NCBI GenBank assembly: GCA_022539475.1
Contig: VCMS01000492.1
Span: 1-23,694, forward strand
DNA from: Gracilaria domingensis
Lineage: Eukaryota; Rhodophyta; Florideophyceae; Gracilariales; Gracilariaceae
Reading direction: 5' to 3'
Length of the DNA: 23,694 nucleotides
The stretch's first letter is position 1. Each line of letters opens with the position of its first letter. Below the pieces are notes generated by a model. The model was not told the DNA's origin and searched no databases. It saw nothing but the letters and a program-made list of their open reading frames with translations. Shown here in pieces: positions 1,804-22,838 of the stretch. A program made the position numbers and the translations under genes.

Positions 1804-2781
1804 TGTAGTGCAAATCCCATTTGGGAGAAATGACACTCAAGGTGCTCGAATCCTTGCTCCCTTGGGAGGTAGACTCAGCAGAAGAGCCCTCCGTATATGA
1901 ATAGCGCGAGTGTAAAGCCCCCCGTACTCCGGAAATACCACGGGGGTGACGGCTGGAATCGCCAAGACGGAATCTGTAAGCAAACGCCTGAGAGTCGAAG
2001 ATCTCTGATCGGAGGCGGAAGGGGAGGAACCCAGGTTGACAGAGTCCTCCTAAAAAGAGAGAAAAGATAGGAAAGAGGATGGGGAAAGGGGGAAAAGAAA
2101 GAAAAGAAAAAGGGGCAAACCCGAGGGCGGGGTCGTGCGACAAGCGGCAACAGGCCCGGGCCGAGGGTGACGATGTGTATTGAGCCCACGCGGCAGACCT
2201 CTATACAGAGTCGATACAATATCTGGACAATAGAGTAGCGGACACCTGCAAGCAAATGTGCGAACACAGTCCGAAGACAAACGTAGTGTTAGATCAGGGT
2301 ACCTGAGTGCTCCCTTGGAAATGAAAAAAACGAAACCGTACGGGGTGACCCTCCTCGCGGAGTTGTGCACTACGCGCAGGCGCTCAAGTCAGAGCCGTGG
2401 ACAAGGTTAAGTTTACTTTGTGGTGGTGACGGCGAGGTCGCCATCACCTAAGTAGGTTTCCACAAATTAAACTAAATAATTAAACGAAGTAGTGCCAAAT
2501 ACGCCAGAGCCACACACGTGTTTCACTTGTGCGGACCCGCCTCGGCGCCACTAATTCTAATAACCAATGCAATTTTCTCTGTAACAGAGCCATTCCATAC
2601 ACGCGTACACGCGATCCACTGCCACAACCAGTTACCATTCCATCAAACCCATCGGGTGCCCTCATGCCATATGGTGTCAGAATGCCACCTAAATTCATAA
2701 CCTTGCTGTAGAGGCGACTCGGAGAGCCGAGGTGTTATGAGACGGAACACGTCACAGACGCGAAATCGCGATTGCTCTACA
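1804..2781 (-). repeat. 3' LTR of older Ty3/gypsy-type element E2
   Basis: Read on the minus strand, this 978-bp segment begins TGTAGAGCAA at 2781 and ends GATTTGCACTACA at 1804. The LTRs of the nested element E1 begin TGTGGAGCAA and end GGTTTGCTCTACA. Both families also carry a CTCC-GCG-GAGGGT-ACC motif a little over 400 bases from the LTR start (about 2350-2370 here, about 3270-3290 in E1). A purine-rich tract lies immediately before the LTR on the minus strand, as expected for a 3' LTR. The segment was identified from these shared ends and spacing, since most of the interior is too diverged to align by eye. It also holds an almost pure purine run on the plus strand at 2045-2120. Confidence 0.72.
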
Positions 2782-2797
2782 CATCCCCATCCTTACG
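2782..2797 (-). other. Polypurine tract of element E2
   Basis: On the minus strand the bases directly upstream of the E2 LTR read CGTAAGGATGGGGATG, a purine-rich stretch in the place where plus-strand DNA synthesis is primed in LTR elements. The corresponding tract in E1 is AAAAAGGGGGAGA. Its position fixes E2 as a minus-strand element whose interior lies to the right. Confidence 0.6.
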
Positions 2798-2820
2798 TCG
2801 AAGAACAGCGTGTCGGCGAC

Positions 2821-2825
2821 ATCAT
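2821..2825. repeat. Target-site duplication, left copy (ATCAT)
   Basis: ATCAT directly precedes the first TG of the E1 5' LTR and is repeated exactly after the last CA of the 3' LTR at 14978-14982. Five-base duplications are usual for Ty3/gypsy integrases. The pair shows that E1 is a single insertion with both ends in place. Confidence 0.92.
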
Positions 2826-3828
2826 TGTGGAGCAAACACGATCCGGTAATCGGCGCCTGATGCATCTCATAATGAGCACTGAACGCCTTGGGTGACATGG
2901 CGCACACTGTGAGTGGCACCCCCATTTTTTGGTTACTTTCTGAAGGAAGTTTTCAGGAACCTTTGTAGGTAGATGTGAGAATTGGCTCACGGACACGAGC
3001 GGTTGCTGGACTTCGTAGTCGACTTGTATTGTAGATACTCAAGGTGTACCCGCCGGGGTTGTGCACAGAAACCCTGACACTGGGTTATACACGTGTTCGA
3101 ACCTCGAGAGGTACACACCGCCACTGTAGTTAGTAATAGCTTAATTCTTGGTAGATTCCTATATAGGCTCGGGCCCTCTCGCCCTGGAGCCCACCAAGTA
3201 AACTCACCTGAGTCGCGTCCTATCTCCCAGGACCGGGCTATAGATATTGTTGCCTACGTAGGTTCACTACTCCTCGCGGAGGGTAACCACGACTGGTCTC
3301 GACACATCTACCCCTCAGGGTCCTTAAGGAAGCCTAAGCTTGCACCTACTGTTGGTTTCTTGCTATTTTTCGGATATCGGCTAACGTCGAGCGTCTTGGC
3401 CAAGGAGTGGCGTCGCTCTGGACAAAGTCGCCTGGTTTAGGTACCGCTTCCGCCCCCGTACGGGTATTCTTTGGCCCCAATCTGGTGCATACTGTTGTCA
3501 GCTCTGCGTGGTCGTCGCGCCGCTCTCGGCCCTGTTTCCGCCGGTTGGCACGGGCCGTAGCTCCGCTCCGTGGTCGGTTTCCGTATACACCGTCCACACG
3601 GTTGAGTGTTCGTGATCCCATCTTTCGGGCTCTACCTCGTTACCCACTTGGGCTCCGCTCCTTTCCCGGTTTCACCTCTGTAGGTATAGCCAGTCACCGT
3701 CTCCGGTCTTACCCCCGGCTTGCTTCTCGCCTGAGCATGGACAGAGGGCTGTGTCGCTGAGACTGCCCATATAGGGAGCAGGACTCAGGCATCCTGTGGA
3801 TCTTCCCCATTTCTGGGTTTGCTCTACA
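2826..3828 (+). repeat. 5' LTR of E1
   Basis: The LTR is 1003 bp, beginning TGTGGAGC and ending GCTCTACA. It matches 13975-14977 along its whole length with no net length difference. I counted about 34 base differences by eye, half of them crowded into 3349-3434. Small reading frames inside the LTR occur in both copies only because the LTRs are copies of each other. Confidence 0.95.
3157..3168 (+). promoter_or_regulatory. Candidate TATA element of the E1 LTR
   Basis: TCCTATATAGGC lies about 330 bases into the LTR and is unchanged in the 3' LTR (14306-14317). A TATATA box at this depth would separate a U3 of about 350 bases from R and U5. The call rests on motif and position only, and no transcription start can be seen. 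Confidence 0.35.
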
Positions 3829-3830
3829 TC

Positions 3831-3843
3831 TGGTCTCCCGACC
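3831..3843 (+). other. Primer binding site of E1
   Basis: Two bases after the LTR comes TGGTCTCCCGACC. TGG pairs with the CCA end of a tRNA, and the next bases would pair with an acceptor and T-arm strand ending GGTCGGGAGACCA. This is the expected place and form for a minus-strand primer site. I could not assign the tRNA, and it does not look like the usual initiator-Met site. Confidence 0.7.
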
Positions 3844-4038
3844 TAGAAAGGTGTGAGGTCAGGTGGTACTCTAACGAGTTCAGAAGTTTGATTGATTGGA
3901 TGGCCCCTTCGGGAGATTGCACTCTAGTGAACTCACCCCCTGCGTTCACTGGAAACAGTTCTCGATTTACCCCGCGTATCGGTGATCTGGTGGACGTTGG
4001 TAACCGTTCTTACGGGTTGTTCATCGGTAATCTGCAGT

Positions 4039-5922
4039 ATGCCGATATCAACTCGGAACTCTAGGGCTCGCTCCGTCAACTCGGCTAGCTCCGCTCCTAC
4101 GGCTGCTTCCCGCGCACAGGCGCCGGCCCCGGAGGGAAATCCTTACCCAGAGCTCACTCGATCCCGAGAAGCAACCTCATCGGGTGAAGTACCCCAAGAG
4201 GCTGTTGTCCCCATGACCCCGCGAGCGGCAACACCGCCACCGGTAGTGGAGACACCGTCTTCGGCCCCTTTGGGAGCGCAGACCCCGCTAGCTATAAGAA
4301 GTCTATGAGCCGGGATGGACAATGCTGACATTGCCCTTAGGGACCTCAAGGAGGGCGTGGAGGATCTTAGACAGACTTTGAAACACGCCCAAGTTAGGGA
4401 AGTCTCAGGAGATATTCGCCTTCTGAGGCAGGACATGAATTTCTTCTTAGAAAGTTTTGGGACCACGCAGGCTTTTGTGGACGAGTACCGAAGAACGGTC
4501 CAAGAATCTCAAATCGAGAGGCAACGATTGCAAGACAGGTTGGACAATCTGGAAGCAATTATCCGGATGGATGAAGATCTAGAAGCCGCCGAACGGAATA
4601 AATCCGAATCGGAAGCCTCAGTACATCGTTCCGCTAAGCGGAGTCGCCGAAAGCCTAAGAAGGACTCGCGTCATTACTCGGATTCATCTGATTCTGACTC
4701 CGACAGTAGCTCGGACGGCTCGTCATCATCGTCATCTTCCGATTCTTCGGCTATTGACTACCATAAGAGTTCCAGTTCTACTTGTTTTAAGGCTACTCAT
4801 TCCACTGTTGGAGCTATTCGCACCCGCAAAAAGGGAAAGAGCGACCCTGGTCTAAAGGAAATCAAACCAACGAGTCCGTTGTATCGGAAATTGCTTTCGT
4901 ACCGTTGCTACCGGTTACAGAACACTGCGTCGTCAAGGACCTCTAAAGGCACTGGAAAAGTTAGAGACTATATCCGTAGACTCGGCGTCACACTCAACAA
5001 GAAGGAGTTTACAGGAGAAGACCCAATCATGGTGCTAGATTTCTTCTCGGGGTATGTTTAAGAAGCGGATATCCTCGGTATGAGTGAGGGACAGGCGTTT
5101 ATAACCCTCCCGTATTTCCTAAAAGGATTGGCAGAAGATCAGTTTAACTCCGCACGCGGATCCTCAACAGCTCCTGACGAGGGCGGAGTTACATGCTGGC
5201 CCGAGGCGGTTCATTACCTCCTCAGGTCATACGCTACTGGTCACGCCATTTAAAATGCTACCACAGCCCTGAGGGAGACGATGCAACGCCCGGATGAAGA
5301 CGAAACGGCTTATTCAACGCGCCTGAATAAGGCCTTTCACCGTTGCGGTAATGTACATCCTTCTCAAGAGAGATGTTCCATATTTGTTGATGGATTGGAT
5401 CCCGCAATTAGGGCACTTGTCGCCCGACATAGGGAAGAGAAGAGGCGAGTTTGCTACCTAGAGCTCATACAGTATGCCCAGGCAGAAGGAGACACACTCC
5501 GTGCACGGAGCTCTTCTCGATCTAAATCCCGAAGGGTCCTCTTCGCCGAGAAATCGGATTCTTCACTTTCCCGTAGCCGTGGGAATCACCCCAGTATTGG
5601 CTATGATAATGTGAACCTCGTAGGTACTGAACTTGATTCGATTGGTACTTCGGACCTCCCCTCGACATCGGCTCCGTCTTCGGATACTGACCCGGCGTTA
5701 TACGCTCAGAGAAACCGAGTCCCTGCAGCTCCGATACCGTTTTCGGGTCACAACATGAGATTCACCCGCCCTGGATGGAAGGATACTGCCCCGCAAGGTC
5801 GTACGGTTTTTCGTTCGCATGACAACCCGACCCCGGTGATCTGTTACGAGTGTTACCAATTTGGTCATATCTCAACACAGTGCACGTTCCCTCAACGGGA
5901 GAGGTCAAAACTTATCGCTTAA
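4039..5922 (+). pseudogene. gag: E1 gag (capsid and nucleocapsid), broken
   Basis: One reading frame, starting at ATG 4039, runs through to a stop at 5920-5922. It is interrupted by stops at 4306 (TGA), 5059 (TAA) and 5251 (TAA), and translation is coherent across each. The order is a Pro/Ala/Ser-rich N-terminus, a helical charged segment (about 4315-4600), a serine/aspartate-rich acidic stretch flanked by basic residues (about 4620-4770), and a capsid-like helical region (about 4980-5500). The last part is a CX2CX4HX4C zinc knuckle at about 5845-5883 (C-YE-C-YQFG-H-ISTQ-C), which packages RNA in Gag proteins. The same frame stays open after 5922 as far as 6150, so the original gag may have been longer. 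Pol starts in another frame at 6153, which suggests frameshifting or reinitiation. The short frame at 3819-4064 between the LTR and gag has no recognisable content. Confidence 0.85.
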
Positions 5923-6152
5923 TATGAGTCGCTCTCACCAGAGAATCAGGCTCGTGTTCCGAGAACATCCTATGAAGTGGCCAAGTTTGCATTGACCCTT
6001 TATCAGGGAAATGGAGGAACCAACGTTGCTGTACTTAATCATACACCGGCCCAACCGTTGGTGGAACGACGTGTACCCGCGAACGGGAATCAACTCGATG
6101 CCCAGGACGGGAATCGCCCGCAACAGGCGGTACTTGCTCCGAAAAACTAATC

Positions 6153-7184
6153 TTGGGAGTCTCCCCGGTGGAAGGGGCGTCTTCTGAGCCGAATGTGAAG
6201 ACGTCCGAAGCGCCTTCGCTTCACTCCCCGGTTGTTAGAATCCTTACGAGGACGATGGCTGCCACAGACGTGGATTCAAAACACTGCAGTGTTTTACGTC
6301 GCCTGTGGATACGGTCCCGCAACCTCCGTATCCCGGATCGAGTCTTTGTTATGGCGAAAAGAAATTACAAGGTATATGCCGATCTCGGCCTTTCCGCCCA
6401 ATTTATGGTTCGTCAACTTGCGGTCCTAGACACAGGCGCCGCCCCAAACCTAATCCATCGGAGGCTAATACCGCCCGCACTTCGGGAAACAATTCGTTTC
6501 AGTCCAGCATTGGATATCGCTGATGCGAACAATAATCCGATTCGAACGGCAAGCTACATAGCGCTCTTGGTGAGATTAGGAACCTGTTTGGTTAAAATCG
6601 ACTTTGTCGTCTGCGACTCAATAGCAGCTCCGATCATTCTCGGCTGTGACTTTTGTAACCGCTTCGTGGAAGCAATCCGTCCGCGAAAACGAGAGGCGGA
6701 GATGGCGGATGGCTCCGTTTTGCCGATTGTCCGGAGACATTTCAGAGCTGCTACGCAGAAACATGTCCCGTTACCGGTCGGCCAAAAAGCAGCCAAAGAT
6801 GACATGGAATCTACGAAGTTACGGGTCCTGAAAACCGTACCACTTCCACCTGAGTCCCAGGTATGGGTTCATGTTACCACCAAACACTATGGTCTTCATA
6901 TTGTACAACCGCTGCCGGCTCTCTATGAACAGCGCCAAATAGCCTTGGCTAATGGAGTCGTTATGATTCAACCGCATGAACCTTTCAAGGTAATGATCGC
7001 CAACTTTGGCAGAACCACCCAGTGGTTAGTCAAGAACCAAGTTGTGGGCTCGGTGCTACCGCACCCTGCCGCGGTGATCCCTACTAAGATCCCCATTGGG
7101 ACGGTTCTCGGAGCATCTGACCCTAAGGAGGGGGAGGAGACAGTTGATTCGCATAAGCTTGACGCTTCGGAAGTCACCGAGTAA
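6153..7184 (+). pseudogene. pol: E1 pol, protease part
   Basis: This is an open frame of 343 codons. A retropepsin-type active site LDTGA lies at about 6427-6441 and is followed by Ala-Pro-Asn. A later IILGCDF motif (about 6634-6654) matches the second conserved strand of retroviral-type aspartic proteases (ILG). The enzyme would cut Gag and Pol precursors in the particle. The frame ends at TAA 7182-7184, but the next open stretch (from 7185) is in the same frame and leads straight into reverse transcriptase, so the stop is most likely a mutation inside one long pol. The N-terminal 60 or so residues before the protease have no clear match. Confidence 0.82.
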
Positions 7185-9452
7185 TCGGATTCAGATGATC
7201 CGAGACCTTCAGAGCTCAGGTCTGTGTCACCGGGCAGTGAACAGACGGATCCTATCGAGAGGTTAATGAAGCTCAATCTGGAGCATGTGCCTGAATCCCA
7301 TTTGGAGAAACTCCGCGGGATGTTGCGTGAGTCTACGCCCATGTGGGATGGAACACTGGGAACTATCAATATCACGGAACATTGCATTGATCTACTTCCG
7401 AATACTCGGCCCATTTCTCAACACCCTTACAGGGCAGGATCGAAGGCTCGGGAAGAAGAGAAAGCTCAAGTGGAGAAGATGCTGCGCGCTGGCGTCATCG
7501 AACCCGCTCAGTCTTCGTGGGCATCACGAGTAGTGCTGGTTCCGAAACCGGATGGCTCTTGGAGATTCTGTATAGATTACCGAAAGTTAAATACGGTCAC
7601 TGTGAAGGATGTATATCCGATACCCCGAATGGATGAATATATCGATTCTCTAGGGAGCGCTAATGTATTCACCACCCTGGATGCTAATTGGGGATATTGG
7701 CAGGTGCCCATTAGGGAAACAGACAATGATAAGACAGCATTTGTATGCCACCAAGGCCTGTACCGTTTCCGGAGAATGCCCTTTGGGTTAACCAATGCTC
7801 CTGCAACGTTCCAACGAGCGGTAGATATCCTCCTCGCAAGGTTCAAATGGACCACATGCTTGGTGTATCTGGACGACATTGTCGTGTTCTCCAACAATCT
7901 GGATGACCATCTAGCGCACTTAAGGGATGTTATGTGAGTACTGCGAGACGCAGGAGTAACGTTGAAACTCAAGAAGTGTGAGTTCTTCACCGAATCAGTT
8001 AAATATCTGGGACACATTATCCGCCCCGGAAAACTTTCAATCGATGAAGTACGCGTCAAATCCCTGAAGGAGGCGAAGCACCCAACCACTCAGACGGAGT
8101 TACGATCGATTTTAGGCGTATGTAACGTGTATCGACGATTTGTCCCGAGCTCTGCAGACATAGTGTCACCACTAAACAAACTCCTAACGAAAGGACAGCC
8201 AGTAGATTTGGAACACTTTGGGAAAGCAGAAGCGTCCGCCTTCGCGACATTGGTTGATGCAGTAACCTCTCCGCCAATCCTGGGCTTACCCAAGCGCGGG
8301 ATGCCATACGAAGTCGACACGGATGCTAGCGCGAACCAGGTTGGTTGTGCGTTGTTTCAGACCGACTAGAACGGTGAGCGACAGCCTATCGGGTACTGGT
8401 CGAGGTCACTGAACGTGCATGAAAGGAATTACTCGGTTTCCGAGAAAGAATGCCTCGCGGTAGTGTGGGCCTTGTCCACACTCAGGCCCTACTTAATGGG
8501 AACCCATTTCCGGGTGCATACTGATCACGCGTGCCTACGTTGGCTCATGGAAATCACCAAACCCTCGGGACGTTTGATGCGCTGGGGACTGCGATTGTCG
8601 GAATTCGATTTTGAAGTAGTCTATAAGAAAGGCTCCCTCAACTTACAAGCTGATGCACTATCCCGCCTGGGCACATCGGCAGAGGCAGAGCCTACGGAGG
8701 ACACTGATATACCATGTTTTATGGTTGGAGACCTGGAAGGAGAAACTGAGATCCTATCGGATGATGTGTGTGATGACATACTCGCCACACAAACGGTCGA
8801 ACCGACACCCGGTTCATTCATACCCATTACTCCAGAGGAGATGATAAGGGAACAGCAAACGGACCCTTTTTGCACCCAGGTGCGAGCCCGTTTGAACGGT
8901 AGATACAGAATACCTTTCGAGGTTCATGATCAAGGATACCTTGCGAGGATGGTGGAATCTTCACCAGAGATGGTAGTACCACACTCGCTGCAGAGTCGTG
9001 TACTTCATTTGTCACACTATATGAAGTTAGGAGCCCATCCAGGAGTTCGGAAGCTGTATCTCACCTTGCGAAGGGACTTCTATTGGCCCGCTATGGCGTT
9101 TGACTGCTACGCGGTTCGTCGCTCTTGTCAAGACTGCGCCAAGAATGACATTAAACTCCGTAAGTACTCGAAGGAGTTGAAGCTATTCCCTGCGAGGTCA
9201 CCACTTGAGTTCGTCACCATCGACATCTCGGGAGAACTCATCAAGACCCCCAGGAGTAATCAATACCTGCTGGTCGTAACTGACAGATTCTCCAAGTTGG
9301 ACAGGACAGTTCCGCTTAAACGGATTACCGCTGCTGCAGTGGCACAAGCCTTCGTGAGCCACTGGGTGTTTGTCTATGGATCGCCTGTACAGCTATTATC
9401 CAATAACGGCTCACAATTCACATTCAAGACGTGTGCCGGATCCTGGATATAA
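7185..9452 (+). pseudogene. pol: E1 pol: reverse transcriptase, RNase H, integrase N-half
   Basis: One frame carries three enzymes, broken by TGA at 7935 and TAG at 8367. RT shows VPKPDGSWRFCIDYRKLN (about 7540-7590), LDANWGYWQVP, FGLTNAPATFQ and the catalytic YLDDIVVFS (about 7864-7890). RNase H shows DTDAS, EKECLAVVWAL and HTDHACLRWL, which supply its acidic residues. Integrase follows with an HHCC zinc domain (H-L-S-H to CQDC, about 9007-9140) and the first catalytic Asp in TIDISG. The second catalytic position, usually SDNGSQF, reads SNNGSQF at about 9400-9420, an Asp-to-Asn loss. The frame ends at 9452 because of a frameshift near 9430. Order and motifs are typical Ty3/gypsy. RNase H and integrase in this copy could not be made without readthrough. 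Confidence 0.93.
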
Positions 9453-10612
9453 GGAATTTGTTTGTAACTACATATCATCCCCAAGCGAATGGGCAAGTGG
9501 AAAGATTTAACCGAACTATACTCGGGACTTTGAGATCCTATGTCGCGGATCACCCCAAAACTTGTGACTTGTATACAGACGCAAAACCCTACGCGTACAA
9601 CACCCAGGTTCATTGGATAACGTCATTATCACCATTCGAATTGGTACTTTCGCGAATACCGCCACCACTGGCAATTGAAGCGCAGCCAACACTGGATACG
9701 TTCCCCTCACCGATTATGTATCGGGAAGCATGTAAAAAATGGCTTACCAAGCTGGTACCTGTTGCTAGGCCCTCAATGGACAAAGCGCAGCGATCCTACA
9801 AACGGCACTTCGATAGTCGAATTCGGAGACCGCTACCTCAATTCAGGGAAGAAGACTACGTGTTCCTCCGCAAAGAGTACTACAATCCTGAAAAGGGACG
9901 GCGCCACAAGTTATCGCCAATCGCGAGTGGACCCTACCGAATAGCTTCCATACAGAACAACAGCGCCGTACTGAATATTGACAATCAGCACGAACGGGTG
10001 TACCGTGATCGCGTCTATCGCGCCCCGAGTCCTCTCCAGAAAGTCGTCTCAACACCGGTACCCGGGAATCCCGAAACTGCTACGCAGGATAGCGCCGCAC
10101 GCTCGAAGTACACTGTTCACCGACCTTCGGTTCTTCCTCACCCGCAGCACGGTCTTTCTGACCTACCTGAAGTCTCCTAGGCACTCAAAGATAATCCTAC
10201 CCTCTCTCGGGCTACTTATACTAACTCAAATAGAGTTCACCCACCGCACACGGTTATTTCTGACGCTAACGTATCGCACCCTAAGAAGGGGGAGGAGGCT
10301 GGAAATCGCTCTCGTATATCGGCCGCACCGGCATCGTCGGAACCCAACCGAGGCGCACGGTCACCGACAGAGATAGAAGCCCAAGCCGAGAATCGTAAGA
10401 CTAACGCGTCAACACGCACAGTAATCGACGACCCGGCCAGGACCACCGTCAGTACGGAAGGAAGAACCCAGAAAGGGGAAGAAGCAGCTCAGGTTAGCAA
10501 GCCGTTTGGGGATCCGTCCAAACCCATGGATCGCGACGCTACGCGCCCGTGTAATGCGCAAAGTTCCGAGAGAACGGCGAAAGCAGTCTCAGCGGACCCA
10601 CTCATGGGGTAA
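9431..10612 (+). pseudogene. pol: E1 pol: integrase C-half and disordered linker
   Basis: After the frameshift near 9430 the integrase continues here. It includes TYHPQANGQVERFNRT with the catalytic Glu (about 9472-9515), then the C-terminal DNA-binding region with a GPYRI motif (about 9930-9944). A TAG at 10178-10180 interrupts the frame, but the same frame stays open for another 143 codons to TAA 10610-10612. That extension is rich in Ser, Thr, Pro, Glu and Arg and looks disordered. It joins the integrase to the chromodomain region. The codon after the TAG continues in the same style, so the TAG looks like a later mutation. Confidence 0.85.
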
Positions 10613-11343
10613 ACGGATAAGAATCCCAAAGGGAGCGGCCTGTAGCAGGCGAAGGAAGCTGGAGACACTGGAAGCCGAAGCCGGAAAGCCAGAAGAAGAA
10701 GGCAAAAGTAACCCCGTAGGGCAAGCCTGAAGCACACAGGACTGCAAGAGCGGCGCCCGAAATAACGGTGTAAAATCCACGTCCGTGTCGTGCACGGGTG
10801 GCCTCCCAGACGGGAGATAGGAGATTTGTGACTGTAATCACATGCCGTGGCGAGCGCCGAGCACGTGCTATCCTGTGGCCGTTCACCGGTGGCAGGCAAT
10901 GTTTTGAACCGTTTCCGGTACGTGTGACGCACGCGCCCTCACGCCCAGCCAATGAAGATGGATGGCAACGCGCCGTGGCCCGTCAATCCGCCGCCCTGCT
11001 CAGTGAGCGTGTTTGCAAGCCTCTCCGTCACAACGGCTTTTCCCCGTCGAAGAAGGCACTACACTCGAATTCGAGACGCGACCGTTCGTCGGCCTGTCGC
11101 CCTCTCGGCAAGAGACGCGAAAAGCCGAACTCCGGATGCAACGACGTTTCAGTGGAGACCGGGCCAGAAGAAATCGGACATCGAATTCGGAAGTTCACGC
11201 AGATCCGTCACAACGGCAGTTACCATCGTGGTGACCTCACACAGCGTCTCCGAGATCGGATTGTATCTGAGTATCTCCCTATACTCATTGGAGTGAAAGC
11301 CTACGCGAGCCGTATGGCGGGAAGAACCGAAGCGATGTCCTAA
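10613..11343 (+). pseudogene. pol: E1 pol: degenerate linker before the chromodomain
   Basis: Coding character is patchy and changes frame. It is coherent in frame 1 from about 10613 with stops, shifts to another frame at about 11010-11200, and returns to frame 1 from about 11180 up to TAA 11341-11343, directly before the chromodomain. The predicted residues are strongly basic (Arg, Lys). No motif is recognised. The likeliest reading is the eroded continuation of pol between integrase and chromodomain, an unusually long spacer of several hundred codons. Confidence 0.55.
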
Positions 11344-11562
11344 GACGAAAAGGAACTTTTCGAGTTCGTCATCGACCGCATCGTGAAGCACGACTATGCC
11401 CACGACGGGACACTACTCTACCGAATTCGTTGGTACGGCTATCCCCCAGCGAACGACACATGGGAACCTATCGAGCACCTTCCGAGGTCAAAGGTAATCT
11501 CATACCATCGCCGGACCCGGACGGAACTCCCCACAACCCTGGAAAAGGCCCAGGTGGGTTAG
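11344..11562 (+). pseudogene. pol: E1 pol: terminal chromodomain
   Basis: This 72-codon segment ends at TAG 11560-11562. It reads FEFVIDRIVKHDY, then YRIRWYGYPPANDTWEP and IEHLP. That matches the chromodomain pattern of a first strand, the RWxGY core, the TWEP turn and a C-terminal helix. Aromatic cage positions are filled (Phe/Val strand, Trp of RWYGY, Trp of TWEP). In chromoviruses this domain sits at the integrase C-terminus and steers insertion towards modified histones. It is cut off from the rest of pol by the stop at 11341 and earlier shifts, although its own frame is clean. Confidence 0.88.
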
Positions 11563-11933
11563 ACCGTAACCAGTAGACTACTGCGGTGAGCGTCACCGCT
11601 CCGCGGTTAGGTGGAAAGGACTCTGAGGAGTATAGAAGGAACAGCTCTTCTATGTATATTAGGAGAGAAGAACTGTAACACCGAGCTTGCGGTTCAGTAC
11701 CGTCATACGGTGTTGTCACGAAGTAGAAGTAGAAGAAGATCTAAGAAGCGCCACGTATGGCTAAGAAGTATTCTGGAAAGGAAGTGCAGATGAAGATGAA
11801 GCTCGCAGTCGAGAAGATGAAGATGAAGAAGCCTCACAGAGGACTAGCAGGAGGAAGGTACCCCTAATGGGTTTGGTTTACTTGAAGAAGTCGCAGGCTA
11901 CAGCAGAAGCCACCGCTACTCGGTGTGATCCCG
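11563..11933 (+). other. Spacer between pol and antisense gene, purine-rich
   Basis: This 371-bp stretch separates the converging 3' ends of pol and the antisense gene. It starts with a perfect hairpin (11583-11599) and then becomes purine-rich, with GAAGATGAAGATGAAG-like runs between about 11715 and 11870. A long internal purine tract could act as a second priming site for plus-strand synthesis, but that is only an inference. No reading frame of note is present. Confidence 0.5.
11583..11599 (+). terminator. Perfect hairpin after the pol stop
   Basis: GCGGTGA, loop GCG, TCACCGC: a 7-bp perfect stem 20 bases past the chromodomain stop codon, between converging genes. It could help end or process transcripts. 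No poly-T follows, and eukaryotic polymerase II does not need such a stem, so the role is uncertain. Confidence 0.25.
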
Positions 11934-13893
11934 TTATCCCGCAGAGGGCCCAGCGCCACCCATGCTAGGGTTCTGACTCAAGTACTGGTTGGCCAGCGCC
12001 GTCATCTGTGCCGCATCGGTCATATCCTCCGGGATCGGAACCCCCATGCTTATCAGGCTAGAGCGAAGAGCCGACACTTGGTTCGGCACAGTACCGGCAG
12101 ACGTTGTACTTATATTCCACCCTGCTGGGGCTTGAGCTCTCCCTGCCGGAACCGGCGTCGCATCTCCGACCGTATTCGGCACACCCACCAAGAGGGCTTG
12201 GCCATCGTCGTTGACGTCATCGCCATGGTCCAACGTCGGATCATCCAAGTCAATGGGCGGAGCATAGTCCTCGGGGAAGACGAACCCCATTGGGTGCCCA
12301 GCTGGGATAGCGCGCTGGACATGCGACATAGCCTCGGCCTGTTGTTCTGAAATGAACTGCCGTTCCCACGGATCGTAATAGACCCACACCCCCGAGCGGG
12401 TGGCAACTCGTCCCGGAGATCGGTCTTCCATGGCGGAGTCCCGTCAGGCTGCCAGTGCACCGGAACACGGTCCCAGTTGACACGCTGAATTGCCCCCAGA
12501 AGGGTCCCTACCTCGTCCTGGTTCGCCTGTGAGCCCAGAGGGATAGTCAAATCAAGCCGATTGATAATCCATCGAAGCAAAGGAGGCAAGTACCAGACTC
12601 TGTAATGGTCATAAACATCCCAAAGGAGACGAGCCGCTACGCGGGCATCCCATTCAGCTGCCACCAAAGCCCAATAACCCGACTGGAGATCGCCAATTAA
12701 TCGAGAACCGATGTAATATATCGACGGAGAGAGCTTCGCGGAGCACCCTCGGGGGACTTCAACACGACTGCACCAGGAGGGAAGCCCAACGAACCGGGAA
12801 GCAACGCGTTGTGATGCAGGCGCTCCGTCTCCAAGTGTGGATACGGAACCAAGTAGCCCGTTCGGGAACGCATACCTCTCTCGAACCGAACTCGGCGCTC
12901 GAAGTCGTACAGATCCCTGTTGAGACGCCTCCGAAGGTACCGGAACTCAGCCCTAAGAAGGGGACGACTCCACAGGAGCATATCGGGATCGATCCTCGCT
13001 GTGTCTGCACGATACTCCGCTTCCGGAAACTCGGCTAAGGCATCTCCATACGAGCGTTCACCATACGTGCGGTAATGAGAGACATCGAAGTCATACTCCG
13101 GCGGAACGGTGTGCTCTCTCCGAACTCAGTGCACTCGCTCGTACGCTTAGCGTGCCATATCTCCTCGAGCAGTATCCAACGATTCGCCACGCGCGCGGAA
13201 GATCAAGTGAGGTTCAACCGCTATGCGGGTCTGCCAATCGCGAGAGCGCACCATATCGCGTCGAATCCCACCTGAGAGAATTCCGTTCGCATCGGCATAT
13301 GAGTTAATAAGAGCCTCATCGTTAACCGCTGTCGGGTGGAACCACGGAGCCCGTGAGAAGATAACACCATCCCTGCGGGGCGAACGATTGAGCAACGACT
13401 CGCGCGAGATCCAACCTCTCGCATTCACCGTTAACGGCATTGGTTGCTCATTGCTCCAAGCTACCGCCTCGACGTCAGAAGCCTGCGGAGCCGCGTTCGG
13501 AGGATAGCCCTGCATGGAAATCGGATACGGAACACCCGCGTGGGGAACTTGATAGTACTGCGCGCCCGGAGGGTAATAAGCTGGATGCTGTATCCGCTGA
13601 CCTTGAGGGAGCGGCGCAGAACTGAGGCCACCGCAGTATCCCGGATGGGCTTGCATCGGAGGCCCTTGGAAGGGAGGAACTTGAGACTGACCACCCTGTT
13701 GGGCACCGCTGTTTGCCGGAGCACCAGACGCCGCCCCCTGCGGAGCTGCGGACGCCGACACCCCTGGAAACGGATTCGTTGAAAACGGGTTCATGCCTGA
13801 GGAAGGAAACTCTCTCGTATTTGAATGTCTTGAGCACTGTAAGATCTCTGCGAGCTCTGTTATTGATGAAACCGAAAGTGCGGTACCCACCAT
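11934..13893 (-). pseudogene. Antisense gene (aORF) of E1, unknown family, broken
   Basis: Read on the minus strand from ATG 13893 (or ATG 13794) to a stop at 11934, about 620-650 codons. The N-terminal 120 residues are Pro/Gly/Gln-rich with QGPP-type repeats. The core holds GWISRESLL, SRAPWFHP, DEALINSY, VPPEYDFD, DPDMLL, RPLLRAEFR, YWALVAAEW and VWYLPPLLR. The C-terminal part has GVWVYYDPWERQF and is Asp-rich after that. Breaks are TAA at about 13145 and TGA about 21 bases further on, a frameshift near 12720 and another near 12400. The gene points against gag-pol and its start lies close to the 3' LTR, so it would need an antisense promoter in or beside that LTR. A diverged copy in E2 (15015-16335) matches with mostly silent changes, so it is or was a functional protein gene. 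I recognise no domain. A structural or silencing-related role is possible but unproven. Confidence 0.8.
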
Positions 13894-13961
13894 CGTGTGT
13901 TGCTTATTTATACGACCACCGACTGCGCCTTCCTCTTCGCCCGCGACGGGAATGCTGGTCC

Positions 13962-13974
13962 AAAAAGGGGGAGA
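13962..13974 (+). other. Polypurine tract of E1
   Basis: AAAAAGGGGGAGA ends exactly at the base before the TG of the 3' LTR. This is the expected primer for plus-strand DNA synthesis and confirms the plus orientation of E1. Confidence 0.88.
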
Positions 13975-14977
13975 TGTGGAGCAAACACGATCCGGTAATC
14001 GGCGCCTGATGCATCTCATAATGAGCACTGAACGCCTTGGGTGACGTGGCGCACACTATGAGTGGATCCCCCATTTTTTGGTTACTTTCTGAAGGAACTT
14101 TTCAAAAACCTTTGTAGGTAGATGTGGGAATTGGCTCACGGACACGAGCGGTTGCTGGACTTCGTAGTCGACTTGTATTGTAGATACTCAAGGTGTACCC
14201 GCCAGGGTTGTGCACAGAAACCCTGACACTGGGTTATACACGTGTTCGAACCTCGAGAGGTACACACCGTCACTGTAGTTAATAATAGCTTAATTCTTGG
14301 TAGATTCCTATATAGGCTCGGGCCTTCTCGCCCTGGAGCCCACCAAGTAAACTCACCTGAGTCGCGTCCTATCTCCCAGGACCGGGCTATAGATATTGTT
14401 GCCTACGTAGGTTCACTACTCCTCGCGGAGGGTAACCACGACTGGTCTCGACATATCTACCCCTCAGGGTCCTTAAGGAAGCCTAAGCTTGCACCTATTG
14501 TTCGCTTCTTGTTACCGTTCCGATATAGGCTACTGTCGAGCGTCTTGGCCAAGGAGTGGCGTCGCTCTGGACATCGCCACTGGGTTTAGGTACTGCTTCC
14601 GCCCCCGTACGGGTATTCTCTGGCCCCAATCTGGTGCATACTGTTGTCAGCTCTGCGTGGTCGTCGCGCCGCTCTCGGCCCTGTTTCCGCCGGTTGGCAC
14701 GGGCCGTAGCTCCGCTCCGTGGTCGGTTTCCGTATACACCGTCCACACGGTTGAGTGTTCGTGATCCCATCTTTCGGGCTCTACCTCGTTACCCACTTGG
14801 GCTCCGCTCCTTTCCCGGTTTCACCTCTGTAGGTATAGCCAGTCACCGTCTCCGGTCTTACCCCCGGCTTGCTTCTCGCCTGAGCATGGACAGAGGGCTG
14901 TGTCGCTGAGACTGCCCATATAGGGAGCAGGACTCAGGCATCCTGTGGATCATCCCCATTTTTGGGTTTGCTCTACA
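13975..14977 (+). repeat. 3' LTR of E1
   Basis: The LTR is 1003 bp from TGTGGAGC to GCTCTACA, preceded by the polypurine tract and followed by the duplicated ATCAT. It agrees with the 5' LTR throughout except for about 34 scattered or clustered base changes. Outside the cluster at 14498-14583 most are transitions. Confidence 0.95.
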
Positions 14978-14982
14978 ATCAT
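14978..14982. repeat. Target-site duplication, right copy (ATCAT)
   Basis: This is an exact match to 2821-2825. Joining 2825 to 14983 restores the E2 sequence that was interrupted, with the E2 antisense gene starting 32 bases further on. Confidence 0.92.
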
Positions 14983-16335
14983 CACCTCGTTCGCGAGAAC
15001 GTATAAACTCAGGCATGAGTGACTCGGACATCCCGATACCAAGAAAACCAACGCTCAACAGCCACACACTCTCAAGTGAACCCACGTCTCCTGCGAAATT
15101 CGATACTCCGAACGACCAAGCAACGAGAGCAGTCGCTTCTTCGATGAATCCGAAATCCAACGACAGCGCTTTCCCTTCCTGAGGGGGTCCCAGCCAGTCT
15201 GGTGCCCCCTCCTGTGCCGGAATTTTCTCTACATGAGCAGGATACTTCGGCGGTTTCGCCACTGCCCCGCTGTTACAGGGGAGTCAGCAGCCGGCTGCTT
15301 CATATCTGAACGTCGCCGCAGTATCGGCTTGGAACTCCTCTGGAGCTATGCCGGTTACGGCGCACGCGTCAGGATGGATCACAAGGGAATCGCTTCTCGT
15401 GCGAGACCCGAGACTAGACGGCAGTTGGGCGTATTCCAGAGCTCCCTGGTTCCACCCTCAAGCGGTGAAGGATGAAGACCTCATCAATTCCTACTCAGAA
15501 GACGGCACACTTCCAGGCGGTTTGCCACGGGATATGGTGACCTCCTGGGATTGGAGAACCCGCATTGCGGTGGCGCCCCATCTCCTATACAGAAAAGGAA
15601 CCGGCAGACGGTACGAGACGCTTGACGAAGCGCAGGTATGGCGCGTCTTCCGTACTTCCGAATGAACCGTGCTCACAACCCACCAGAAATGGTACCGCCC
15701 GAGTACCGGTTCGACCTTTCCCGTTACCGAATGTACGGTGAAATCACCTATGGAGCGAATCTCGCTGCCTTCGATCCGACGAAGATTGACCCGAATGCTC
15801 CGATGGATCCGGATATGTTGCTCTTCAATCGACCGGTTCTGCGAGCAGAGTTCCGCTTCATGCGACGCCCTTCTGGCGAGGGGACCTTCAGCGACCGTGT
15901 CCGAAGTGAAAGGAAGTGGCAATCCCGGTTCGGGTTCTTCGTACCTTACACGAATTCCGAAGTCGAACGTCTGCAAAATGACGCACTACCGGGTCGTTAC
16001 GTCCCAATTCCTCCGTGGTGGAGCAACCTTGAGGTTCAACGCGGTTGTTTCGCGGAGTTTCCTCCCTGCATTGCCTACGTTGGCTCCCACATGATTGCGA
16101 ATCCGAAGTCCAGTTACTGGGCCCTGATTATGTGCAAATGGGCTGCCCGCGTTGCCGCGTTCACCCTCTGGAAAGTCTACGACCAATGCCGTATTTGGTA
16201 CCTTCCCCCGACGTTGAGGCAGCTCATCCGACAAGTAGATTTACACACCGATCTCGGTTCCTCCACCAACGTGGATGAATTGCTGTACCTGCTCGACGTC
16301 ATCGATGATATCGATTCGTCTGTGTTCTGCAAAGT
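14983..16335 (-). mobile_element. Element E2, internal remnant
   Basis: This is the continuation of E2, which starts with its LTR at 1804-2781. E2 reads on the minus strand, so this is the part of its interior next to the 3' LTR. It contains only the antisense gene, and no E2 gag or pol follows on the minus strand to the right. Similarity to the E1 antisense gene fades near 16335, so E2 was cut there by deletion or recombination. The right edge is estimated to within some tens of bases. Confidence 0.7.
15015..16335 (+). pseudogene. Antisense gene (aORF) of E2, broken and truncated
   Basis: Starts at ATG 15015 (an alternative ATG at 15138 lines up with the E1 ATG at 13794). The frame carries TGA at 15180 and 15234, stays open to 15665, then loses about one base near 15635 and continues in another frame from 15638. 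Shared blocks with the E1 copy include GWITRESLL, SRAPWFHP, DEDLINSY, VPPEYRFD, DPDMLL, RPVLRAEFR, ARVAAFTLWKVYD and WYLPPTLR. It lies on the plus strand, opposite to E2 itself, and next to the E2 3' LTR, exactly as in E1. The open frame runs on to 16483, but residues after about 16335 have no counterpart, so the true C-terminal quarter is missing. Function unknown. Confidence 0.78.
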
Positions 16336-16754
16336 GGAATATAGTCTGTTCGCTTTGGAAACTAAGCTAGTTTTGGGGCTATTTGGGGCGCGCGAGGGGG
16401 TAGCAGAGGCTGGCACTCAAAAAATTAAGAAATTTTGGAATATTAAATTCCATCTCGCGCAGTTTAGTTCTTGGGTCCCCTAGTTTTTGTAGAGGTTCTA
16501 CTTCGCCGCACCACCTCATTCACTCTTTTCCGCGACCCTCTCTCAAAACTGCACTCGTGCTAGTTTGCGTTTCCATTTTCTCCCATGTTGCAATGCCAAT
16601 CGCAACTCATCCCACCTCAATCATCCCATCACTTCTTCCCAGTCCACACCACCCCCGCTATTTACCCATTTCTCGCCCATCACGCGTTCATTTTGTAGAA
16701 GTCAGGTGCACAACTCTCCCCCTTCTCGTATACCCGCCTCGCCCCAAAACGGCT
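16336..16754. other. Junction region without a gene
   Basis: This stretch lies between the broken end of E2 and the coiled-coil gene. It holds a short inverted repeat (TGGAAT-ATTAA-ATTCCA, 16436-16452) and then pyrimidine-rich plus-strand DNA. Long plus-strand frames across 16557-17780 come from a near absence of G on that strand and are not supported as genes. Confidence 0.5.
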
Positions 16755-19938: not shown

Positions 19939-20565
19939 GGTTAGAACACATGAATTTTCGGTGTTGTAAACCTTTTAGAGATAGTTAAACATAAAAGTTA
20001 CTTTATCGAAATGACCTGTTCCTATTACATTACTTATATTGTTCGTCCTTCTGTGGTTCAAATATGCCCCTTTAAATCCTACATCCCTTATCACTAATAC
20101 TTCGCTAAGATTTTGCTAGATAGAAAATGGTCATTCCATATCATTAAAGTGCACGATACTAGTAACGAAACAAGTACAAAAATTGTGATATTTCTGAAGA
20201 ACTAAGCGTTTGCATTACTTGGGGCACCCGTAAAAAGTAAGGTAAACCTTTTATGGGTTTCAACCCATAATGGAGGTTGTTTTACTCTTCTTGATTTCTA
20301 AGCTCATGTTAAAGATATTTACAGTTTTCTTTACCCACTTGAACCCGTACATATAATTTATGACTAAATCATCCTTTCTTTACTTCAAATCGATGCAAAA
20401 ACTTCTCCTCCTAGTAACGTTTTAAAACAGTACTACAATACCCGTATATGGTCGTTCTTAGACTCTTTGTATACTAGGAAACACCTTGTGAACATCAATC
20501 ACATCCTTCTCATTCGTATACCCACACCCATTTGCAAAACGAACCCTTTCGAAAGCTTTCAAAAC
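19939..20565. other. AT-rich intergenic region with a hairpin
   Basis: This 627-base gap lies between the reductase and HAD genes, is AT-rich, and has no credible frame. It presumably holds the 3' end signals of the reductase and the promoter of the HAD gene. A perfect inverted repeat lies at 20251-20270 (separate entry). Confidence 0.5.
20251..20270. repeat. Near-perfect inverted repeat
   Basis: TTATGGGTT-TC-AACCCATAA is a 9-bp perfect stem with a 2-base loop. The arms go on imperfectly outward (about 20232-20250 with 20271-20289), sharing GTAA and ACCT blocks, so the whole structure is near 55 bases. It could be a small hairpin-forming element or a relic of a miniature transposon. Confidence 0.45.
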
Positions 20566-21437
20566 ATGTATAACTCGGAAGTTAGAGCCCAAGAAGTAAC
20601 TCCTCAGCAGCTGGCTAACGAAATATTCGAAAATGGCTACGCCGTGATTAGTGATGTTGACGGTACTCTGAAAAGAGCTGGGGACAACATTCCTGCCGAA
20701 ACAGTCAAATGCATGAAGTACATCAACGCACGCGTTGGTTTCGGAATTGCTACTGGGCGAGATATAGAGGATGCCGAGAGTTTCATGGAGCACCTGGGTG
20801 GCTACACTTTTGGCATCTCTGGAAACCAAGGCGCACGGGTGAGATTATCCAATGGTACCGAAATTGATCAGGACCTTGACAGGGAAGGCTACGAAAGATG
20901 TGCAGCCGAACTTGAGAGACTTGCACTCTCCTTAAATGAATCGCACGGACTTCACGAAGAGCGTCAACAAGCAGTGGTGAGCACTAGAAAAGACAGTGGA
21001 CTCCCTAACTTCACGTACAATGGACTGTCGAAGTGGAAAACAGAAGTTAACTCCGGTATTTCAAAAGTGTTGACATCCTTTCCGAACCTGGTTGCGTACC
21101 CTCAAGATGAAAACTGTGACATAGGGGACATTCGTTTCACGAAAAATAGTGGGGCGCTAGCCTTGGTTGAAAACGACCCCAGTTCGACACACATTTAATC
21201 GTTGCTTTCGGGAATGCTTCCAATGATGGCCCTCTATATGAAATGGCAACCCTGGCAGTTCATGTGAAGGGAGAAGACCATCCAGCAGCGGTAACATATC
21301 TTGTTGATGGCGTGGAGGACGTGCATGAGACCATCAGAAGGGTGGCAGAGCTGTACGGGTACAGAAAATGCAAGTGTCAATGGTTTAGAAATGCTCTTGG
21401 AATTTGTTTCAAGTGCTACGATGCCTTTAATACTTAG
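20566..21437 (+). pseudogene. HAD-superfamily phosphatase, copy A, with a 2-base frameshift
   Basis: Starts at ATG 20566, which lines up residue for residue with the ATG of copy B. Motif I SDVDGTL at residues 29-35 has both catalytic Asp (30 and 32). Motif II is IATGRD (61-66), followed by FGISGNQGARV. The motif IV region is FGNASNDGPLYEM, but it lies in a different frame from about 21190. The shift sits in the run ACACACA at 21187-21193, and losing one AC unit restores the frame, so it looks like slippage. Without it the protein stops at 21196-21198, before motif IV. The layout is HAD subclass IIB (Cof-like sugar phosphatases), with the cap between motifs II and III. The natural substrate is unknown. 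A sequencing error or polymorphism could also explain the shift, in which case the gene is live. Confidence 0.75.
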
Positions 21438-21451
21438 CTATGATATGGATC

Positions 21452-22323
21452 TCAGTAATAAAAGTGTCGTATATATCTCAATACCCTTTTATGAATCATG
21501 GTGGTTTTTATCCTGCTGCTTTTCCTCGTAGCCGTACAACAGAGCACCAACATAATTGTCGAATGTACATCCTCCACGCTTTCGAACAGGTTGTGTACTC
21601 CACGCGGGATACAATCTTCTTTGACGTGAACGCCGTACACGCCTACCTCATGCAAAGGCCCGTCGCTCAAAGCACTTCCGAACGTCACGACGTCATCCGT
21701 ATCAATAAATCTCGGTTCATTATCCACAAGATTTTCTCCTCCGCTTCCTTTTGTGTATCGCTTGTCCACAATTTGCAACTTTTATCGCCGGGATAGATAA
21801 CAAACGCATCCATCTTCTGCAACAGGTCCCCAATAGCAGAATCCACTTCTTCTTTCCACTGCCACAGTTTGTTGTACACGAAATTGGGAAGGCCACTATC
21901 ACTTCTGGTCTCCACGAACCCTTGTCATCATCATTCACATACCATGCCTCCTATTCAAATCCCTTGCCAGGAACAGTAGTCCGTCAACAGTGTGGTCAAG
22001 GGTGTGATCATTGAATGCACCCTTAATTTCCCTCTCGTCAGAGAAACGCATGAAAGCTCCATGATTCGCCGAGACACCAAACTTATAGTCTCCGAGTCCT
22101 TCCATTTTCCCCTCCACGTCGCCACATCACCCCCTGTGACAAGTCCGAAACCAACACGTTCGTCAATGAACTTCATACACTTCACAACTTCTTCTGGAAT
22201 TGACTCTCCTTCTCTTCTCAACGTTCCATCAACGGAACTTAATATACCGTAACCATTGGCATATATGAACTTAGACAAGGTATTTGGTGAAATTTCCGCC
22301 AAGTCTCTCTGTTCCTCTGCCAT
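21452..22323 (-). pseudogene. HAD-superfamily phosphatase, copy B, degenerate
   Basis: Paralogue of copy A, on the opposite strand and facing it tail to tail. It starts at ATG 22323 (MAEEQRDLAEI). Shared blocks are VDGTLRREGE, IPEEVVKCMKFI, VGFGLVTGGD, KFGVSANHG, SGLPNFVYN and FGSALSDGPLHE. Similarity fades near 21554. The nucleophile Asp of motif I is Ser (SSVDGTL; codon TCC at 22234-22236), and motif II has lost its Arg (TGGD for TGRD). The reading frame shifts at about 22105, 21935 and 21785, and a TGATGATGA run interrupts one frame. It cannot be an active phosphatase. The convergent pair with 30-50 percent protein similarity looks like an old inverted duplication. Confidence 0.75.
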
Positions 22324-22838
22324 TTTTCCTGATACAGTCACCATACTGCACAAGTACCGCATAGACAGGAACTGTATAGACTTCTCAGTTTCACACTTCT
22401 CTTAAAGCAACCTTAAGTGCAGTTTCAGAATGTTAGGACGCTACATGTTCAATTGCGAATTGACTGGTGCCACCAATGATGTTAACGATACCGAGCATTT
22501 CGCATGTTGCAATTAGACGAAACTGGACCAAAGACGTTTGACATTTGTTCAATTACCAGCCTGCCGCACCTTTTCTATGTTCATATGTATAGCCTTGTAA
22601 TAGTATACTACTCTTAATACTCGCAAGACACACATAATTTACTATCATCTCATTCTCATCCACTTCGAGGCGCTCGCAGCCTCATTATTGGCAAATCGTC
22701 ATCACTACTACTCTCGAGCACTTCGGTTCTACCGGCGTCCGCTTCCACACCAATCTCCACGACCACTTGGTCTTCGTCCATGTCAACCGCCCACCCTCCT
22801 TATCGGACAACAGTTCATCCTCCGCCTCCTCCTCCTCG
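22324..22838. other. Intergenic region, no gene seen
   Basis: AT-rich to about 22650, then rich in CTC/TCC repeats on the plus strand up to the oxygenase-like fragment. It has no frame with protein motifs. The promoter of copy B would have been in the first part. Confidence 0.45.

What the first reader, a model, noticed from the sequence alone, without database searches (positions are those of the whole stretch)
11934..13893. Long antisense gene in a chromovirus, kept as protein in two diverged elements
Between the chromodomain and 3' LTR of E1 lies a roughly 620-codon gene on the opposite strand. E2 has a copy at 15015-16335 in the same place and also antisense to its element. In a 20-codon block I compared by hand (13297-13356 minus against 15435-15494 plus), 11 codons differ silently and 3 change the residue. 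That pattern means selection on protein. Antisense ORFs are known in some plant gypsy elements, but I recognise no family for this protein. It could be an extra structural protein, an RNA-silencing suppressor or a regulator of transposition.
Basis: partly seen in the sequence, partly recalled or inferred. Interest (0 to 1): 0.88.

Follow-up and report, generated by a model that had tools for sequence, protein, structure and literature searches.

The report
Antisense accessory gene in algal retrotransposons
A jumping gene family, apparently of a red alga, carries an extra protein gene written backwards beside its right end; the copies in this window are broken, but many other copies are open and the protein is clearly preserved by selection, though nobody knows what it does.

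Summary
E1 is a chromodomain Ty3/gypsy element (2826-14977; LTRs 96.6% identical; TSD ATCAT) with a long coding region on the opposite strand between chromodomain and 3' LTR. The hand-compared block is exact: 6 identical, 11 silent, 3 replaced codons. But both window copies are broken, E2 also truncated. Elsewhere in this 77.9-Mb genome the frame is open: 56 of 75 scored copies of one family and 57 of 77 of another have no stop in the main match. Of 41 scored pol places, 23 have a listed antisense partner, none a same-strand one; 2 of 2 others probed had one. dN/dS is 0.13-0.15 between related families. No match in Pfam, NCBIfam, PHROGs or PDB; the one named homologue is from the red alga Gracilariopsis chorda. 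Antisense pol-3'LTR genes are known in plants and a fungus (PMC7264820), so this is a new protein family and host lineage of a known kind. Likeliest role, unproven: a trans-acting accessory regulator of transposition.

The parts
2826..3828 (+). E1 5' LTR (1003 bp, TG...CA)
   Evidence: self-comparison, 96.6% to 13975-14977; ends and TSD ATCAT
4309..5922 (+). E1 gag remains, broken by stops
   Evidence: 5254-5922 matches the gag region of L061-L063; weak, sub-threshold zf-CCHC E 0.047
6039..10180 (+). E1 pol remains: protease, RT, RNase H, integrase; in-frame stops TAA/TGA/TAG and a frame change
   Evidence: Pfam RVT_1, RT_RNaseH, Integrase_H2C2, rve (rve and protease below cut-off); stops
11344..11559 (+). 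E1 chromodomain
   Evidence: PF00385 E 6.8e-12; the same domain found in L061-L064
11934..13893 (-). E1 antisense accessory gene (aORF), decayed copy in several frames
13904..13913 (-). GTATAAATAA motif 10 nt before the aORF ATG (possible antisense promoter element, untested)
   Evidence: similar motif in F2, F3b, E2 and part of F3; absent in F4 and F5; after the first ATG in F6
13962..13974 (+). E1 polypurine tract next to the 3' LTR
   Evidence: AAAAAGGGGGAGA
13975..14977 (+). E1 3' LTR
1804..2825 (-). E2 3' LTR and purine-tract side, cut off from the E2 aORF by the E1 insertion
   Evidence: continues into 14978-16316 in E2-family copies
15015..16316 (+). E2 antisense accessory gene, broken and truncated (antisense to E2)

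Best explanation
Shown: the thing is the decayed copy of a conserved accessory gene carried antisense, between integrase-chromodomain and 3' LTR, by chromodomain Ty3/gypsy elements of several diverged families in one genome, apparently an alga's. Open copies encode about 565-640 residues from the conserved M-N/D-P start: a variable Pro/Gln/Ala/Ser-rich N-terminus, a conserved core of about 350 residues, an SPGR...GD-VYYDP motif, a low-complexity linker and a short recurring C-terminal segment. Inferred: it is transcribed from its own promoter beside the purine tract and 3' LTR, reading toward pol, so that it is made independently of the genomic RNA. Its product acts in trans, most likely in the nucleus, as a regulator of the element's expression or of cDNA import or integration, comparable to retroviral accessory proteins and to plant antisense accessory genes. 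The protein, not merely the antisense RNA, is what selection keeps.
For: Four 10-kb stretches show the aORF antisense and 3' of integrase (L061-L064) with a chromodomain between; in L064 only the integrase C-terminus was found. F6: an RT/RNase H piece 73% identical to L062 pol lies on the opposite strand at the expected distance. Of 41 pol places scored (of 3783 candidates), 23 have a listed antisense aORF 474-3058 bases downstream and 0 a same-strand one; 2 of 2 of the others probed had one. No stop in the main match: 56 of 75, 57 of 77; open over all 703 codons: 5 of 14 F2 loci. dN/dS 0.13-0.15 between sister families. 69-72% identity of F6 to a Gracilariopsis chorda protein. No membrane segment in five families here: highest 19-residue hydropathy 0.85-1.54. 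No resemblance to the elements' gag pieces (hhalign probability 0.1). For a regulatory role only analogy: Grande gene23 is nuclear with its own promoter (as reviewed in PMC7264820).
Against: No RNA or protein data, so antisense transcription is inferred. The TATA-like motif is absent in F4 and F5, exact in only 5 of 11 F3 loci listed, and sits so near (or, in F6, after) the first ATG that a standard TATA box would start the RNA inside the frame. Basic clusters that could serve nuclear import are few in the five families computed. Two outside homologues have more hydrophobic stretches (P0002 1.86, P0007 2.15). No fold could be predicted (tool switched off). Within families dN/dS is 0.16-0.74 (F3 0.39-0.74, one bootstrap interval reaching 1.15), i.e. 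recent copies decay. Broken aORFs occur beside stop-free pol matches (L028 and L029 beside C61 and C39), so the gene is not strictly needed in cis. 16 of 41 pol places were left unexamined for the aORF.
Confidence: 0.45

Rival explanations
1. Anti-silencing factor: the protein blocks the host's RNA- or chromatin-based silencing of the element, as TE-encoded anti-silencing proteins do in plants (recalled).
For: A protein kept open in high-copy families of near-identical copies fits a trans-acting factor; it can be broken in cis.
Against: No significant domain match in the libraries searched; no data on silencing in this host.
Confidence: 0.2
2. Extra structural or particle-associated protein (assembly, RNA packaging, transport).
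For: Size and low-complexity ends resemble structural proteins; it diverges only somewhat faster than gag (E1-F2: gag 71%, aORF about 62% with L008 standing for E1, RT 90%).
Against: Separate antisense coding uncouples it from gag-pol stoichiometry; no gag similarity on partial gag pieces; no membrane segment in five families.
Confidence: 0.15
3. The antisense RNA itself is the agent (self-limiting double-stranded RNA against the genomic RNA), the protein being secondary.
For: An antisense RNA would overlap about 2 kb of the genomic RNA; review PMC7264820 raises this for plant aORFs.
Against: Third positions change freely while residues are kept (codon-position differences 121/79/284 in F3 versus F3b; dN/dS 0.13).
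Confidence: 0.05
4. Recent capture of a host gene by one element, carried along passively.
For: The gene reads from its own start beside the LTR.
Against: Found in at least six diverged families, with E1 and F2 nearest each other in gag, pol and aORF alike (four families); also in G. chorda and diverged unnamed proteins. No host copy was seen, but none was sought systematically.
Confidence: 0.05

Closest known systems
Plant antisense aORF-3R genes: maize Grande gene23, rice RIRE2, Silene Retand ORF4 (TRP28), bean PvRetro13 (PMC7264820, PMC11963269)
   Same: Place (pol to 3' LTR), antisense direction, presence in many copies, sequence-conserved protein, unknown function
   Different: No TRP28 or SMC domain match; the host elements here bear a chromodomain (Retand is non-chromovirus, PMC11963269); the one named homologue is from a red alga
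Botrytis/Sclerotinia Boty antisense aORF (as cited in PMC7264820)
   Same: Antisense ORF between pol and 3' LTR outside plants
   Different: Sequence not compared here
HTLV-1 HBZ and related antisense retroviral genes (described in PMC11963269, PMC7264820)
   Same: Antisense gene near the 3' LTR; works-like model for a regulator
   Different: No Pfam domain of any kind found; about 600 residues; no sequence relation found in the searches made
Env-like sense aORFs of plant gypsy elements (PMC7264820)
   Same: Place between pol and 3' LTR
   Different: Opposite strand; no membrane segment in the five families computed

Membership tests
Chromovirus (chromodomain Ty3/gypsy) | Chromodomain after integrase | tested here: met
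   E1 PF00385 E 6.8e-12; 65-73% identical domain in L061-L064
Chromovirus (chromodomain Ty3/gypsy) | gag-PR-RT-RH-IN order between LTRs with short target duplication | tested here: met
   Pfam (protease and rve weak); order also in L061-L063; LTRs; TSD ATCAT
Antisense aORF-3R (works-like class) | Coding frame antisense to pol, between pol and 3' LTR | tested here: met
   LTR pair shown for E1 only, purine-tract edge seen beside other families' aORFs
Antisense aORF-3R (works-like class) | Kept in most copies with protein-level conservation | tested here: met
   the lists are best-scoring subsets, so shares are not whole-genome rates
Antisense aORF-3R (works-like class) | Transcribed antisense from its own promoter | not testable with these tools
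   TATA-like motif in some families only; no RNA data
Retand TRP28 protein (PF04195) | TRP28 domain match | tested here: not met
   no PF04195 in Pfam scans up to E 10 or 0.5; HMMER filters drop most matches above about 0.1
Env-like aORF | Sense orientation and membrane segment | tested here: not met
   antisense; hydropathy maxima 0.85-1.54 in five families here, though 1.86 and 2.15 in outside homologues P0002 and P0007
Gag duplicate | Similarity to the elements' own gag | tested here: not met
   hhalign probability 0.1 on partial gag pieces

The most novel reading that the evidence does not exclude
A protein family found so far only in red-algal-type chromoviruses and unnamed relatives has been kept by selection as an antisense accessory gene since before Gracilariopsis and this alga split, and arose independently of the plant and fungal antisense genes. 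An antisense regulator gene beside the 3' LTR would then be a repeated, convergent solution of LTR retrotransposons in distant eukaryotes, perhaps against host silencing.
Probability: 0.3. Interest if true: 0.72.

Novelty: new variant of a known kind. Interest (0 to 1): 0.56.

Why it matters
Antisense accessory genes of plant LTR elements are cited back to 1997 in PMC7264820 and still have no known function. Here is a protein family without a match to any named family searched, in the same place in chromodomain elements of another lineage, with two large families whose scored copies are mostly open. That makes function testable in a living host and makes convergence a real question.

Tried and rejected
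Rejected: (a) A spliced antisense gene. One search showed a gap of about 70 bp between two matches to the G. chorda protein, suggesting a conserved intron; the sequence is one continuous frame, and the G. chorda model lacks residues (about 26) that the other families have. (b) Env-like protein. (c) Gag duplicate. (d) A SAP-like reading of the C-terminal segment: a PDB search with 13 aligned pieces gave only matches of E 0.53 or worse. (e) Viral or prokaryotic homologues: in IMG/VR 21 and in GTDB contigs 37 stretches matched a peptide pattern, none confirmed by tblastn (two patterns each). (f) My first ORF table assumed loci were oriented by match; they are in contig orientation, so minus-strand copies were missed; redone. 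One search was run before that correction and shows only loci that happened to be, or were turned, the right way.

Led nowhere: structure prediction (switched off), so no fold search; the species name (not given; red alga inferred from the one named homologue); literature on red-algal antisense ORFs: none seen in the listings of searches of the held library.

Full report
What is in the window. E1 spans 2826-14977. Its two 1003-bp LTRs are 96.6% identical, begin TGTGGAGC and end CTCTACA, and are flanked by the duplication ATCAT. Sense coding remains are gag, protease, RT, RNase H, integrase (gag knuckle, protease and rve below Pfam cut-offs) and a chromodomain. pol carries in-frame stops TAA, TGA and TAG, so E1 is a dead copy. 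On the minus strand, 13893 down to 11934, lies the reported region. It is open only in pieces (13147-14055, 12697-13125, 12110-12946, 11934-12443) and its homology falls in three frames.

E2. Window 1804-2825 and 14978-16316 are contiguous in E2-family copies (for example L032-L037, 89-93% identical), overlapping there by up to the 5 bases of E1's target duplication. E1 thus inserted into E2, between E2's 3' LTR and E2's aORF. The E2 aORF starts at ATG 15015, is broken, and its match ends at 16316.

Recounted: 6 identical, 11 silent, 3 replacement codons. Exactly as stated.

Copies in the genome. The window's genome has 77.9 Mb in 680 contigs. A 747-base piece of E1's aORF gives 13 other matches of 82-92% over 697-745 bases, then shorter or weaker ones (40 of 75 candidates scored). 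Protein searches found many more; each lists only the best-scored candidates: 75 of 1334, 77 of 1350, 75 of 1341, 107 of 1015. The first-look numbers are candidate stretches, not copy counts. I name families E1, E2, F2 (L017-L030), F3 (for example L046, L065-L068), F3b (L044, the same place as L062), F4 (L063, L069-L071), F5 (L064), F6 (L072).

Open frames. F2: L017, L019, L020, L023, L025 are open over all 703 codons, 5 of 14 loci L017-L030, of which L026 is cut by a contig end. F4: 56 of 75 scored copies without a stop. F6: 57 of 77 main matches without a stop. The N-terminal stretches are listed apart, a few carry a stop, and the list is cut. F3, F3b and F5 each have open copies. No fully open E1-family copy was seen among L001-L016. 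The lists favour good copies, so the shares are upper-biased.

Layout. In L061 (F2), L062 (F3b) and L063 (F4) the aORF is antisense to gag, protease, RT, RNase H and integrase and lies 3' of integrase, with a chromodomain between. In L064 (F5) only the integrase C-terminus and chromodomain were found. For F6, an RT/RNase H piece 73% identical to L062 pol lies on the opposite strand at the expected distance (L073). One search scored 41 pol places of 3783 candidates. Two of the 18 without a partner were probed with 441-base fetches; both contain the aORF antisense, with a frame change in each stretch. The other 16 were not examined.

Selection. NG86 on codon alignments: F3 L046 versus F3b L062, 564 codons, pN 0.168, pS 0.647, dN/dS 0.128 (bootstrap 0.085-0.171); F2 L023 versus E1-family L008, 370 codons, 0.150 (0.061-0.216). 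More distant pairs are saturated at silent sites (many pS above 0.7, some infinite by Jukes-Cantor) and only say that pN is about half of pS. Within families the ratio is 0.16-0.74: 0.16-0.66 in F2 and 0.26-0.50 in F4 on few changes, 0.39-0.74 in F3, 0.31 for L008 versus the window's E1 N-part; the interval for L065-L066 reaches 1.15. This is the usual picture of constraint on active lineages and decay of individual copies. The other five frames hold 6-41 stops in the six pairs compared; the nearest of them in pN/pS is an opposite-strand frame (0.39-0.63 against 0.26-0.51).

Protein. Homologues outside: P0001-P0004, P0005-P0008, P0009-P0013, none with a precomputed Pfam domain. Only P0005 is named: Gracilariopsis chorda BWQ96_10156. 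Alignment A5 of 18 sequences, some partial, has 20 invariant columns including the first M, around motifs such as LRAEFR, ERR.RSR.G, EVPRGC.AELPP, EW.ARVA..LW..YD..R.W and LG...N. Most C-termini keep a short segment. No significant match in Pfam (only hits below cut-off), NCBIfam and PHROGs (5 proteins each) or PDB (none, or E 0.098 and worse). E1 and F2 are nearest each other in RT (90%), protease (74%), gag (71%) and aORF (about 62%, with L008 standing for E1), so gene and element appear to travel together, on four families only.

Start and promoter. A TATAWA motif lies 0-20 nt before the first ATG in E1, F2 and F3b and in 5 of 11 F3 loci listed, and in E2 (read); not in F4 or F5; in F6 it lies after the first ATG. 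An N-terminal IP-V/I-PR-type motif recurs with silent changes in E2, F3, F3b and F5 and in looser form in F2 and F4. Both this ATG and the later conserved M-N/D-P could be starts. I leave the start open.

Interpretation. Shown: conserved protein gene, antisense, accessory, in chromodomain elements. Inferred: antisense transcription, trans action, nuclear regulatory role. The last rests on analogy with Grande gene23 and retroviral accessory genes as reviewed in PMC7264820 (parts 1-2 of 3 read) and PMC11963269 (passages read).

Host. The red-alga assignment rests on P0005 and its 69-72% identity to F6 copies here; the species is unknown to me.

Novelty. Antisense pol-3'LTR genes are known from flowering plants and a fungus; the listings of searches showed no report from red algae in the held library. 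PMC5970526 (passages) reports Gypsy and Copia elements in Gracilariopsis lemaneiformis and its main text does not hold the word antisense; PMC12502185 holds none of my six terms.

Noticed in passing
L064:816-4740 (C49): In this F5-type copy, where gag-pol would be expected, there are two long sense frames (880 and 439 codons) without Pfam match at E 0.01, followed by integrase C-terminus and chromodomain; perhaps a replacement or a captured or nested gene.
   Followed up: partly
window 16317-16682: Directly after the end of E2 homology, 366 bases match sequence near another E2 copy (L038, C453) at 97% in the opposite orientation.
   Followed up: no
P0005 (Gracilariopsis chorda BWQ96_10156): The public gene model lacks about 26 residues present in the other families; probably a false intron in annotation.
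   Followed up: partly
window 20368-21198 (+) and 21955-22401 (-): Two apparently related HAD-like hydrolase genes or pieces in opposite orientation (70% over 108 bases; Hydrolase_3 E 1.6e-9 for the first).
   Followed up: no
window 3831-3843: Primer-binding-site-like TGGTCTCCCGACC two bases after the 5' LTR.
   Followed up: no
L028 and L029 with the pol places C61:246799-250014 and C39:5893-9108: Stop-free pol matches beside a broken aORF (L028 by a frame change, L029 by a stop), suggesting the aORF can be lost or supplied in trans.
   Followed up: partly
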